From assembly GCF_007753265.1 (NCBI RefSeq), contig NZ_CP036349.1:2885363-2949362 (forward strand): a stretch of DNA of 64,000 nucleotides, given 5' to 3'. The notes beneath the pieces were generated by a model. That model did no database searches and was not told the origin of the DNA. It was given only the letters and a program-made list of their open reading frames with translations. The DNA is from Botrimarina mediterranea (GTDB lineage Bacteria > Planctomycetota > Planctomycetia > Pirellulales > Lacipirellulaceae). Of the stretch, positions 13,365-16,588 are shown in pieces. Position 1 is the first letter of the stretch; each line of letters opens with the position of its first letter. Made by a program: the position numbers and the translations under genes.

Positions 13365-13583
13365 TCAAATTGCTTTGATCCTCGCCAGTCGTCGTGACAT
13401 GAAGTTGGTCATGGCAATGTAGATCATCGTTTCGCTGGTGTGGGGATTGTGCTTGTAGTCTCGGCTCTGGCGGCGGTACCGCATCAGCCAGGCGAAGGTC
13501 CGTTCTACGCTCCAACGCTTGGGTAGCATGACGAACCGCTCGGCTCCCGCCGGACTGAGCAGACGGTTGGTGGAGATCTTCAA
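13365..13583 (-). pseudogene. IS5-family transposase C-terminal remnant
   Basis: The minus-strand frame reads RFVMLPKRWSVERTFAWL and YRRQSRDYKHNPHTSETM. This is the C-terminal end of IS5-type DDE transposases, including the Glu of the DDE triad in VERTFAW. Only about 55 family residues remain; sequence before about 13550 has no resemblance, and no inverted repeats or target duplication are visible. It is a dead fragment of an insertion sequence. Confidence 0.75.
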
Positions 13584-13930
13584 CCTCCTACGCGGGGAAG
13601 GACGAGGAGGTCGAGCCGCCAGGTCTATGGAGACCGAGAGCCTGTAAACGCCGCGACCGGCCGACGGCGCTGGCTCCCCGGTCGTGCATCACGGCTGGGA
13701 AACCGTTGATGCGAAATAGAAGAGTTCTCGTTCGGCTACGCCGTCGCGCCCAGCGATTCGGAAACCTCACCGTCTTGGTTGCGCTCGGGGGGGGCGCACC
13801 AGTTGGATCGCTGAGCGACGCCAGAAATGCTCCCCTGCGTTCTAGACCCGCTGCTACCAATCCGTGAGCAAACCGCAGCAAAGTAGTAACGCCCTGCTGC
13901 AGGGGCAGGGTTCGAAGCCGCCATCTACTA
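13584..13930. other. Unassigned stretch inside decayed element
   Basis: No supportable gene. A minus-strand open frame covers 13588-14202, but its translation is driven by the DNA repeats to the right and resembles no family I recognise. Confidence 0.35.
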
Positions 13931-14229
13931 GATCGCCAGCCGCCAGCAACCCAAAATTCGCCAGCCGATAAATCGCCGGCTATGGAAAATCGCCAGCCAG
14001 GAAATCGCCGGCCGCCAGGAGGTTGGACGAGGCTGCGGATGTCGAGCAAGCTTCGCGACGGGTTCCGCTGACTATCGAGCGAGTAGGCTGAACCAGCGGC
14101 GATGGCGAGGGCTAGCCGCCAGCTAGGAAATCGCCAAGCACAAAATCGCCAGCCGCCAGCTACAGAAAAATCGCCAGCCGCAGAATCGGCAGCCGTCAGC
14201 ACAAGAATCGCCAGCTACGAGTTCCGCCA
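13931..14229. repeat. Degenerate iteron-like direct repeats
   Basis: About twelve imperfect copies of a unit near AAATCGCCAGCCGCCAGC occur in the same orientation in two clusters, about 13931-14019 and 14111-14229. Examples are GATCGCCAGCCGCCAGC at 13931, AAAATCGCCAGCC at 13987, GAAATCGCCGGCCGCCAGG at 14001, AAAATCGCCAGCCGCCAGC at 14142 and AAAAATCGCCAGCCGC at 14166. Spacing is irregular, roughly 15-22 bases within a cluster. They lie just beyond the 3' end of a ribbon-helix-helix ORF and beside a DUF3987 fragment. Iterons bound by a replication or partition protein of a former element are one reading; simple repeat expansion is another. Confidence 0.65.
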
Positions 14230-14232
14230 GCG

Positions 14233-14367
14233 TCACGGAGTTTTCTTGGTGGATAGTGGCAACCTCTGGATTGCCACGACGATCGCCTGACTGCGGTTGA
14301 GTCCGTGGCGTTCTGCATATTCATCAACCCTGGCGACGATCGACGCGTCAACCTTCGCTGCGATCAT
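14233..14367 (-). CDS. Small ribbon-helix-helix (CopG-like) protein
   Basis: A 44-residue ORF from ATG 14367 to TGA 14233. It reads MIAAKVDASIVARVDEYAER, then HGLNRSQAIVVAIQRL. This is the ribbon-helix-helix pattern: a short beta strand with alternating residues, helix A (LDxxA-like VDEYAE), G-x-N/S-R-S at the turn, then helix B with AI..AI. CopG itself is only 45 residues, so the length fits. Family members bind DNA as dimers and control plasmid copy number, antitoxin operons or partition. The codons overlap, on the opposite strand, the first 20 codons of the DUF3987 fragment. No clear ribosome site and no toxin partner are visible. It may be a relic. Confidence 0.5.
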   Translation of the reverse strand: MIAAKVDASIVARVDEYAERHGLNRSQAIVVAIQRLPLSTKKTP

Positions 14368-14994
14368 CACAAGAGGCTCACCGCCAAGCTACAGGCGGCC
14401 ATCGACCGCCTCTACGAGCTGCACGGGGCAAACAGTAGCGAGAGTGAGATCACGCCGGTGGTCCTGACGCTCTCCCCTGGCGCTAAGAAGTTGTGGGTCG
14501 ACTTCTTCACGCAGCACGCCGAGGAGCAGCAGGCCTTGGAGAGGGATCTAGGGGCGGCTTGGTCGAAGCTCGAGGGGGGGACAGGGCGGCTGGCGCTGGT
14601 GCTCCACATGGTGGACGGTACGCAGGGGACCGACGGGCCGATCTCCCAGCAGTCGATGCAGCGGGCTGTCAAACTGATGGGGTGGATCAAGCACGAGACG
14701 CGTCGCGTCTATGCCAGGCTGGCTGAATCGGAGGATCAGCGGAAGGATCGCGAGCTCGTGGAGCGGATTCAGAAGAACGGCGGAAAGATCAACCCGCGGG
14801 AGATGCAGCGTGGTTCGCGCGAATGGCCGACGGCCGATTCCGCGGAGGGTGACCTAGAACGGTTGCAGGGCCGTGGACTCCGTGAGTGGGAGGTGAACCC
14901 GCCTTCTGGCAAAGGCGGCCGACCGGGGAGGGTGTTCTATTTGAAGGATCACGACGGCGATGTCGACGGAACCTACCCGCCAGCCGAGGAATAA
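14305..14994 (+). pseudogene. DUF3987 C-terminal fragment (phage/plasmid primase-type)
   Basis: The open frame holds ITPVVLTLSPGAKKLWVDF, then EEQQALERDLGAAWSKLEG and RLALVLHMVDG. This is the C-terminal part of DUF3987 proteins, which occur in phages, plasmids and islands and carry a helicase/primase-like ATPase domain upstream. Here that ATPase part is missing. Recognisable family sequence starts near 14374 (LTAKLQAAIDRLYELHG), and the first 20 codons from GTG 14305 are merely antisense to the ribbon-helix-helix ORF, which dates the junction to about 14370. The tail (GLREWEVNPPSGKGGRPGRV) resembles the winged-helix end of the family. It is a truncated remnant with no start of its own. Confidence 0.65.
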
Positions 14995-15066
14995 CGAGTT
15001 TCGTCAACGTCGACGCAGATAGTAACTTCTATGGGCGAGGGCTAATGAGCTCGGGCCCGTTTCGAT

Positions 15067-16588
15067 AAGGAGCAGAACATAGCGAGTGTTTACAAGCGTG
15101 GCGGCTCGAAAGCGAAGGTAGTTGGTACGTGTCGTGGGTCGATCACACGCGCAAGACCAAGACGAAGAGCGCCCGGACGACCGACAAGGCGACGGCCCAG
15201 AGGATCGGCGCAAAGCTCGAAGGCGACGCGGCGTTGCGGCGCGAGGGGGTGATCGATCCGATGGCGGACCGATTCTCCCAAGAAGGAGGGCGCCCACTCC
15301 GGGAACACATTTCCGCCTACAAAGAGAGCCTCGAGACGGCGCAGAGGACGTCTCGTCACATCGATGAGACCATCGGCTATCTCTTGAAGATCGTTGAGAA
15401 CGGCCAGATCGAAACTCTTCGACAGTTCGATGCGTCAATCGTCGATCGTTATGCAGAGACACTACGGTCGCGGGGACTGGGTGCGAGGTCGGTCCAGACG
15501 TGCCTGACGGCCGCCAAGTCGTTCGCGAAGTGGGCAGTCGCCACCGAGCGACTCTCCCGCGATCCACTACACTACTGGCTATCAAAAAGCCCAACCCGCA
15601 GCGTGATCGCCGGCGCTTGCGACGCGCCCTGACGGCGGAGGAGTGGCCTTGGCTGCTGAAGGCGACGGTAAGCGGCCCGGTCCGTCGCGAGATGAGCGGA
15701 CCGGAGCGAGCGCTGCTCTATCGAGTAGCCATCGCCACGGGCTATCGGCCCATCGAGTTGCGTCGGGTCACAGCGAGCAGCGTCGACCTCCAGGGTCCTC
15801 CGTGCGTCCGTCTGGATGCTTACGGGACTAAGAACGGACGGTCCGCTGCTCAGCCGATTGACAGTCGGCTTGCTGAGATGCTCCGACTCCATACTTCGGG
15901 TCTTGCCCCTAAGGCTCCCCTCATTCGTCTGCCACATCCCACGAAGCTGCCTGAGATGTTGCGTAAGGACATGCTGGCTGCGCGCGAGGCTTGGCTCGGC
16001 GACTCATCTGACGAGGTTGAACTCGGCCACCGTCAGGCGACCGACTTTCTGGCCGAAGAGAACGAGGCGGGCGAGCGGCTCGACTTCTACAGCCTGCGAT
16101 GCACAACCGCTACTTGGCTGGTCCAGTCGGCCGTCGACGTGAAGACCGCGCAGGAAGTCCTTCGCCATTCGACCCCTGAATTGACGATCGGAATCTTCGC
16201 CCGGAGCACAGCCGCTTCGCGAACCGGCGCGACAGACCGGTTGGTGGAGAGCCTCGGTGCGCAGCGCAAACCACAGCGCACGCCCCGCGATAAGGCGCCA
16301 GCGACCGCGACTCCGTGCGAGTGGGCCACGCAGCGGCCGCCCCGGAAAACCCGGGTGGCGATTCGCCACAAGAGCTGCCGCGACAGCAACTTAGGCGACG
16401 GGGCGCCGCTTCGTGCGACGCCATGCAGAGAGCGGAGGACAAGGGATTCGAACCCTCAACCGGTTTCCCGGCAACTGATTTCGAGTCAGCCTGCTAACCA
16501 TTCGCTTATCCTCCGGGCAAGTCATCCCCGGCCGGGGCCGGAGTCGCTTACGCAGAACTGTAAAACTATCTGTCGGCCGGCCGGGTGA
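15067..16588 (+). pseudogene. Decayed tyrosine recombinase (integrase)
   Basis: A phage-type integrase with several lesions. A perfect AAGGAG at 15067-15072 is followed, 6 bases on, by ATA (15079) instead of ATG, then ASVYKRGGSKAK. One base is missing near 15117, where the frame changes to GSWYVSWVDHTRKTK. A second single-base loss near 15578 moves the frame again, to KKPNPQRDRRRLRRALTAEE. The SAM-like DNA-binding part is at 15290-15560. The catalytic part keeps the first Arg (GYRPIELRR) and the Lys (GTKNGR), but HxxR is Y-S-L-R (DFYSLRC) and the nucleophile Tyr is Phe (LTIGIFARS). The enzyme cannot be active. The frame stays open into the neighbouring tRNA-Ser on the other strand; the true end was probably before 16430. 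Confidence 0.8.
16433..16514 (-). tRNA. tRNA-Ser (anticodon CGA)
   Basis: The minus strand folds as a tRNA of 82 bases. The acceptor stem pairs GGAGGAT with GTCCTCC, with G as discriminator. The D arm includes AATGGTTAGC. The anticodon stem of five pairs carries loop CTCGAAA, with anticodon CGA at 16481-16483. There is a long variable arm (GCCGGGAAACCGG) as expected for serine, and a T arm with GGTTCGAATCC. CCA is not encoded. It reads UCG. Its 3' end faces a dead integrase, the usual layout when a tRNA gene serves as an integration site. Confidence 0.95.

What the first reader, a model, noticed from the sequence alone, without database searches (positions are those of the whole stretch)
13365..16514. 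Decayed integrative element beside tRNA-Ser(CGA)
IS5 tail, repeats, ribbon-helix-helix ORF, DUF3987 fragment and dead integrase lie together, and the integrase points to the 3' end of tRNA-Ser. The contents are those of an integrated plasmid or satellite that has been deleted down to about 3 kb. I found no convincing second copy of the tRNA end near 13.2-13.9 kb.
Basis: partly seen in the sequence, partly recalled or inferred. Interest (0 to 1): 0.6.

Follow-up and report, generated by a model that had tools for sequence, protein, structure and literature searches.

The report
Stranded 30-kb island at tRNA-Ser
The broken integrase beside a serine tRNA gene is the decayed integration end of a block of about 30 kilobases of probably acquired genes in a planctomycete chromosome, a well-known kind of genomic island whose far end lies outside the window.

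Summary
The size claim is wrong. The missing second copy of the tRNA 3' end exists: a perfect 56-bp direct repeat 30.4 kb to the left, 14 kb outside the window, running from the anticodon region to the tRNA 3' end in the orientation expected of attL. The 3 kb is the decayed integration/replication end of a ~30-kb genomic island whose cargo includes histidine kinases, a di-haem peroxidase, an MscS-type channel, PEP-CTERM/dockerin proteins, a sigma factor and a GH92 glycosidase. A congener (G003) has an open integrase and a DUF3987 protein at the same tRNA with a fragment 24 kb away; another congener (G002) has that tRNA without element. Related integrases sit beside tRNAs of many kinds. This matches cryptic tRNA-integrated primase elements already described: an inactivated new member of a known kind. 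Not shown: an empty site of this very lineage, and arrival of all 30 kb at once. A lead: two elements in G003 share a near-identical replication gene but have different integrases.

The parts
16431..16486 (-). attR: 3' part of tRNA-Ser(CGA) plus one base; its perfect copy (attL) lies outside the window at G000:C1:2871340-2871395, i.e. window coordinates -14022 to -13967
   Evidence: 56/56 identity, E 3.6e-21
16432..16514 (-). tRNA-Ser(CGA), integration target
   Evidence: ARAGORN and Rfam
15079..16279 (+). tyrosine integrase pseudogene: start position ATA, two frameshifts, HxxR His to Tyr, nucleophile Tyr to Phe
   Evidence: Pfam, alignment to 13 relatives, three-frame translation
14305..14994 (+). 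C-terminal fragment of a Prim-Pol/DUF3987-type replication protein; N-terminal two thirds of DUF3987 and any Prim-Pol missing
   Evidence: DUF3987 profile 239-363 of 364; G003 relatives carry Prim-Pol, PriCT_1 and whole DUF3987
14233..14370 (-). ribbon-helix-helix ORF (45 aa), overlapping the start of the DUF3987 fragment, probably at a deletion junction (inference)
   Evidence: RHH_1, just above cut-off
13915..14236 (.). degenerate repeat patch (AATCGCCAGCC-like units), function unknown
13365..13583 (-). C-terminal tail of an IS5-type transposase, rest missing
   Evidence: DDE_Tnp_1_2 and DDE_Tnp_1; no other copy in the genome at E <= 0.001
10955..13186 (+). cargo: GH92 glycosidase, near-copy of a GH92 outside the island
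   Evidence: Pfam; 93.2% DNA identity over 2150 nt
8553..10842 (+). cargo: sigma-70 factor and FecR/LamG protein (overlapping ORFs)
   Evidence: Pfam
3141..8556 (+). cargo: PEP-CTERM-like protein (motif just below cut-off), GxGYxYP/dockerin protein, a 357-aa ORF without Pfam match, DUF1559 protein
   Evidence: Pfam
373..1956 (+). cargo: MscS-type channel, best match in another genus
   Evidence: Pfam; 70% in G023, 34-40% in the three congeners
1..16486 (.). part of the proposed 30.4-kb island that lies inside the window; the rest extends left to G000:C1:2871340
   Evidence: repeats and geometry

Best explanation
A mobile element of about 30.4 kb integrated at tRNA-Ser(CGA) of a planctomycete (family Lacipirellulaceae, by kinship). 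Its integrase recombined an attP carrying the 3' part of the tRNA with the chromosomal gene, crossing over in the anticodon region; the tRNA was rebuilt at the right end (attR) and the old 3' part was displaced 30.4 kb to the left (attL). The right end carried the integrase and a Prim-Pol/DUF3987-type replication protein; the rest is cargo. The right end has since decayed: most of the replication gene is gone, an IS is truncated, the integrase is frameshifted and lacks its nucleophile. The island is now stranded. Shown: repeats, geometry, lesions, relatives of the integrase and DUF3987 protein at the same tRNA. Inferred: that the 30.4 kb arrived as one unit, that decay followed integration, and the replication role.
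For: 56-bp perfect direct repeat of the tRNA 3' part, 30.4 kb away on the integrase side, in the right orientation, intergenic, with no tRNA gene there. In 8 of 15 relatives' elements tested (of 20 fetched) the same kind of fragment was found 10.2-31.2 kb away, starting at tRNA nt 22-30. Congener G003: integrase 51% identical and a DUF3987 protein at the same tRNA, fragment at 24.1 kb. 6 of 39 genomes, own included, have tRNA-Ser plus a 3' fragment in the same orientation on one contig within 75 kb. G002: tRNA without fragment, its two sides matching the two sides of a 57-60-kb stretch in G003 that contains the 24-kb element. Integrase family: a tRNA beside 19 of 20 loci and 50 of 67 named loci (the two sets overlap). 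MscS and the GxGYxYP body are best matched in other genera.
Against: No relative shows the empty site of this lineage: in G001 the gene block left of attL is inverted and not next to the tRNA. In 7 of 15 relatives' elements no fragment was found in the stretch fetched. The island GH92 is 93% identical to a GH92 outside the island, and a G001 relative of the first half of the NmrA/DUF2867 protein is 73% identical, so part of the cargo may be local. GC is only mildly different (61.9% against 62.8 and 64.0%).
Confidence: 0.8

Rival explanations
1. Composite: a smaller element integrated at the tRNA, and much of the 27 kb between attL and the integrase end came in later by other routes (IS insertion, local duplication, recombination), pushing attL away.
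For: GH92 near-copy of a gene outside; transposase remnants inside (two places); histories of cargo genes differ: best matches in different genera and families.
Against: 30.4 kb lies inside the range of fragment distances found in relatives' elements (10.2-31.2 kb; up to 74.6 kb at this tRNA); the repeat is still perfect, so there was little time for many later insertions.
Confidence: 0.15
2. The tRNA fragment is a by-product of the inversion or of a partial duplication, unrelated to the integrase.
For: The block left of attL is inverted relative to G001, with a breakpoint near attL.
Against: The fragment's limits coincide with those of relatives' elements, and a dead integrase lies at the expected end; an inversion by itself does not copy a tRNA part in direct orientation (general knowledge).
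Confidence: 0.03
3. One reading: an element deleted down to about 3 kb, its left end lost or unrecognised near 13.2-13.9 kb.
For: The recognisable mobile-element parts do lie within 3 kb.
Against: A perfect left end exists at 30.4 kb; no second tRNA end near 13.2-13.9 kb at the sensitivity used.
Confidence: 0.02

Closest known systems
tRNA-integrated genomic islands as defined by Islander (PMC4383910; abstract and passages seen)
   Same: tDNA plus displaced 3' fragment in the same orientation, integrase between them, length 2-200 kb, fragment outside protein domains, attachment site including the anticodon loop.
   Different: The integrase is a pseudogene.
Cryptic integrated elements with AEP/Prim-Pol primases fused to DUF3987 (PMC5862659; passages seen)
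   Same: Relatives carry Prim-Pol, PriCT-1 and DUF3987 beside a tyrosine integrase at tRNA genes, bounded by direct repeats; no conjugation or phage structural family among the island proteins scanned.
   Different: The passages seen do not mention planctomycetes; in the window only the DUF3987 C-terminal part is left. Membership of the relatives in a named AEP family was not tested.
PICMI phage satellites (PMC10803314; one passage seen)
   Same: Integrase plus a primase matched by DUF3987/DUF5906 models.
   Different: PICMIs are defined with AlpA and Fis genes; none was found in the island proteins scanned, and the target here is a tRNA.

Membership tests
tRNA-integrated genomic island (Islander criteria) | tRNA gene and a fragment of it reaching the tRNA end, on the same replicon | tested here: met
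   tRNA nt 29 to the 3' end, 56/56
tRNA-integrated genomic island (Islander criteria) | 3' fragment downstream of the tRNA and in the same orientation, 2-200 kb away | tested here: met
   30.4 kb, same orientation, on the 3' side
tRNA-integrated genomic island (Islander criteria) | fragment not inside a protein domain or a full tRNA gene | tested here: met
   L003 5341-5396 lies between ORFs 2543-5068 and 5926-7950; no tRNA in L003
tRNA-integrated genomic island (Islander criteria) | integrase gene in the interval | tested here: met
   Phage_integrase domain in an open frame, but the gene as a whole is a pseudogene
tRNA-integrated genomic island (Islander criteria) | empty site in a relative | tested here: inconclusive
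   G002 is empty relative to G003; no empty site joining this genome's own two flanks was found; G001 is rearranged
Cryptic integrated element with Prim-Pol/DUF3987 primase (PMC5862659) | AEP/Prim-Pol domain fused to a putative helicase domain | tested here: inconclusive
   Window: DUF3987 C-terminal part only. Relatives: Prim-Pol, PriCT_1 and DUF3987 in one 744-aa ORF in L090, and in two frames in L083
Cryptic integrated element with Prim-Pol/DUF3987 primase (PMC5862659) | direct repeats at the ends, often at tRNA genes; no conjugation or phage genes | tested here: met
   repeats; Pfam scans of 20 proteins of the island region gave no conjugation or phage structural family; smaller ORFs were not scanned
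PICMI phage satellite (PMC10803314) | AlpA and Fis genes beside integrase and DUF3987/DUF5906 primase | tested here: not met
   no AlpA or Fis family among the island proteins scanned; target is a tRNA

The most novel reading that the evidence does not exclude
The island is a stranded branch of a planctomycete family of integrative elements that change their tRNA target by exchanging integrase modules: in G003 the elements at tRNA-Ser(CGA) and tRNA-Met share a Prim-Pol/DUF3987 protein at 96% identity and about the first 60 residues of the integrase, while the rest of the two integrases has diverged, as if recombination inside the integrase gene had re-targeted one replication module.
Probability: 0.35. 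Interest if true: 0.45.

Novelty: new member of a known kind. Interest (0 to 1): 0.3.

Why it matters
It turns a '3-kb relic' into an island with both ends mapped, so the genes in the left quarter of the window (MscS, sigma factor, dockerin/PEP-CTERM proteins, GH92) are best read as accessory cargo. It marks tRNA-Ser(CGA) as a repeatedly used integration site in this group (6 of 39 genomes examined, own included), and points to a pair of elements in G003 with which exchange of integrase modules could be tested.

Tried and rejected
RHH as part of the core module: BLAST of the RHH ORF against small ORFs of four relatives' elements (L083, L085, L090, L094) gave nothing significant. Repeats as conserved iterons next to the replication gene: TRF on nine relatives' element ends found a few short arrays (L084, L088, L094) but none with a similar unit; the patch stays unexplained, and a search of the own genome gave no second copy beyond chance-level hits. 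Structured RNA: Rfam at gathering cut-off gave only the tRNA in 12900-17300.

A trans-acting integrase of the same type in the genome: one search found only the dead gene in G000 at E <= 0.001. Two other DUF3987 loci in G000 have tyrosine integrases of other kinds beside them (Pfam), so rescue in trans is not excluded. IS-mediated deletion through another copy of the same IS: no second copy of the tail.

Age conflict (perfect repeat beside a dead integrase): 0 of 56 differences has P 0.06 at 5% neutral change, where about 2 stop codons would be expected in the 384 integrase codons counted and 0 are seen; both fit recent decay.

Literature: 'DUF3987 + integrase + Planctomycetes' 0 papers; 'genomic islands + tRNA + Planctomycetes + integrase + attachment site' 1 paper, listing only; 'DUF3987' 10 papers, listing, two of them read in passages; 'Lacipirellulaceae + genomic island' 3 papers, listing only; 'Planctomycet + mobile genetic elements + tyrosine recombinase' 10 papers, listing only. 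Nothing in those titles and abstract starts describes this element family; the papers seen as listings were not read, and subscription papers are mostly not held.

Counting notes: the row 'G099' is locus L099, i.e. genome G089; the row G003b_Arg is a second tRNA tried for an element already counted; 5 of the 20 fetched loci (L089, L092, L096, L100, L102) were not tested there. In one search my ARAGORN parse printed nothing; tRNAs come. In one search, 13 of 80 loci had under 900 bp downstream and are left out of the tRNA count (3 of those 13 do have a tRNA); 19 of 80 had too little upstream DNA for the DUF3987 count. One search finds DUF3987 beside 5 of 20 integrases; the profile search adds L088 (G005:C15:13466-14545), so at least 6 of 20, and some of the 20 genomes were not. 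Match lists were cut ('more matches are not listed').
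Full report
What was checked. The window is G000:C1:2885363-2949362 of a single-contig genome of 5,871,207 bp. G043 is listed as the same family as the window's genome, and NCBI places L. limnantheis in Lacipirellulaceae, so the host is a planctomycete of that family (inference). The repeat patch is real: eight AATCGCCAGCC-like sites in 13931-14216, against 1.85 expected in 64 kb.

The integrase is dead. ATA stands where the start is expected, the coding path needs two frame changes (near 15115-15128 and near 15572), and against 13 relatives the His of the HxxR box is Tyr (12 of 13 have His, G003 Lys) and the nucleophilic Tyr (13 of 13) is Phe (the box assignments rest on general knowledge of tyrosine recombinases). 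The DUF3987 fragment matches only profile positions 239-363 of 364. In G003 one relative has Prim-Pol, PriCT_1 and DUF3987 in one 744-aa frame (L090); the one at tRNA-Ser has the first part of Prim-Pol in a different frame from the rest (L083), so there 'intact' applies to the integrase frame and the DUF3987 part only.

The missing end. A search of the whole genome with 13365-16514 gave two places: the window itself and a 56-bp perfect match at 2871340-2871395 (E 3.6e-21). It is tRNA nt 29 to the 3' end plus one base, in the same orientation, 30.4 kb away on the integrase side. It lies between GH127 and a histidine kinase gene, with no tRNA gene there. This is the tRNA-plus-fragment signature of a genomic island (Islander, PMC4383910, abstract and passages); the fragment includes the anticodon.

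Relatives. The search with the integrase C-terminus found matches in 73 of 117 genomes. Of 20 loci fetched, 19 have a tRNA beside the integrase, 18 of them convergent, with different tRNAs (Ser, Lys, Met, Asp, Glu, Arg, Thr, Cys). DUF3987 lies next door in 5 of 20 by tblastn and in a sixth by profile. In 80 named loci (partly the same loci), 50 of 67 with at least 900 bp downstream have a tRNA there, 48 convergent; 10 of 61 with enough upstream DNA have DUF3987/Prim-Pol. In 8 of 15 relatives' elements tested a second copy of the tRNA 3' part was found on the integrase side, 10.2, 12.9, 13.1, 16.8, 19.0, 21.7, 24.1 and 31.2 kb away, starting at tRNA nt 22-30, 87-100% identical; in 7 of 15 none was found in the stretch fetched, some of which were short. 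The G000 repeat (nt 29, 30.4 kb) fits this set.

Same tRNA. Among 39 genomes, own included, 6 have the tRNA-Ser(CGA) gene and a 3' fragment in the same orientation on the same contig within 75 kb: G000, G003, G013, G017, G018, G035 (tRNA type by ARAGORN). In G003 the integrase (51% identical) and the DUF3987 protein sit directly at this tRNA and the fragment is 24.1 kb away. In G002 the tRNA has no fragment, and genes on its two sides match genes on the two sides of a 57-60-kb stretch in G003 that includes the 24-kb element; what the other ~33 kb are was not worked out. In G001 the tRNA has no fragment and the genome has no match to the integrase.

Flanks and cargo. Genes right of the tRNA are collinear with G001; the larger ones also with G002 and G003, where the tRNA itself lies elsewhere. 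Genes left of attL match G001 as a 33-kb block, inverted. In the G001 stretch looked at (325-560 kb of its contig 2), island genes have no ortholog in place; matches are GH92 (82%, which is the partner of another GH92 outside the island), a transposase piece (65% over 136 aa) and partial or weak ones. Cargo by Pfam: two PAS histidine kinases, a di-haem cytochrome c peroxidase, a transposase fragment, an NmrA-like/DUF2867 protein, a deaminase, an MscS channel, a GxGYxYP/dockerin protein, a DUF1559 protein, a sigma-70 factor, a FecR/LamG protein and GH92. MscS is best matched in another genus (70% in G023; 34-40% over part of the protein in the congeners). The GxGYxYP body is found in G012 (53%), G005 (63%) and G018 (31%), and not in the congeners among the rows listed. 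The 1017-aa kinase has only partial matches among the rows listed. The NmrA-like/DUF2867 protein has a 73% relative of its first half in G001 and a full-length 60% relative in another family. GH92 is a near-copy (93.2% DNA over 2150 nt, coding part only) of a GH92 about 26 kb left of the window start, so at least that gene has a local history. Composition differs only mildly: island 61.9% GC, its left 9 kb 59.0%, flanks 62.8% and 64.0%.

How it works. By general knowledge of tyrosine integrases at tRNA genes, attP brings a 3' tRNA part that rebuilds the gene while the old 3' part is displaced. The replication protein would serve an excised, replicating form (inference; DUF3987 is predicted, not shown, to be a helicase, PMC5862659, passages). 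Here the replication and integration end has broken down, and the island is inherited as ordinary chromosome. That the 30.4 kb came as one piece is likely but not proven.

A lead in the relatives. The two elements of G003 (tRNA-Ser(CGA) and tRNA-Met) have Prim-Pol/DUF3987 proteins 95.8% identical over 663 aa but integrases 48% identical. DNA identity is 91-99% per 250-nt step across most of the replication gene and falls to about 50% some 60 codons into the integrase gene; the first 40 integrase residues agree at 39 of 40. The 403-aa gene upstream is less alike (57% aa). This is what exchange of the integrase part between elements of different tRNA specificity would leave. It is one pair, so it is a lead.

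Verdict. It is an inactivated member of a known class, of modest interest.

Noticed in passing
L083 8030-12095 and L090 10756-14822 (two elements of G003): Prim-Pol/DUF3987 proteins 95.8% identical, integrases 48% identical, with the drop about 60 codons into the integrase gene: looks like exchange of integrase modules between elements at tRNA-Ser and tRNA-Met.
   Followed up: partly
window 11031-13176 and window coordinates -25937 to -23792: Island GH92 is 93.2% identical in DNA over 2150 nt to a GH92 outside the island; the match is confined to the coding part after about 25 codons, as in gene conversion or a gene-sized duplication.
   Followed up: partly
window 13915-14236: Patch of degenerate AATCGCCAGCC-like repeats with no similar array in nine relatives' element ends and no second copy in the genome beyond chance-level hits.
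   Followed up: partly
L225 8001-17277 (G000:C1:4957001-4966277) and L224 3941-14392 (G000:C1:801941-812392): Two other DUF3987 loci in the same genome with tyrosine integrases of other kinds; one abuts tRNA-Glu(CTC) and has an EcoEI-type restriction subunit gene nearby, the other an MmeI-like restriction-modification gene.
   Followed up: partly
window coordinates -47543 to -14295 against G001:C2:430806-463407: 33-kb gene block inverted between two congeners, with one breakpoint close to attL/tRNA-Ser.
   Followed up: no
G003:C1:1906995-1939406: A further ~33 kb beside the 24-kb element at tRNA-Ser is absent from the matching place in G002; no third tRNA fragment was found there.
   Followed up: no
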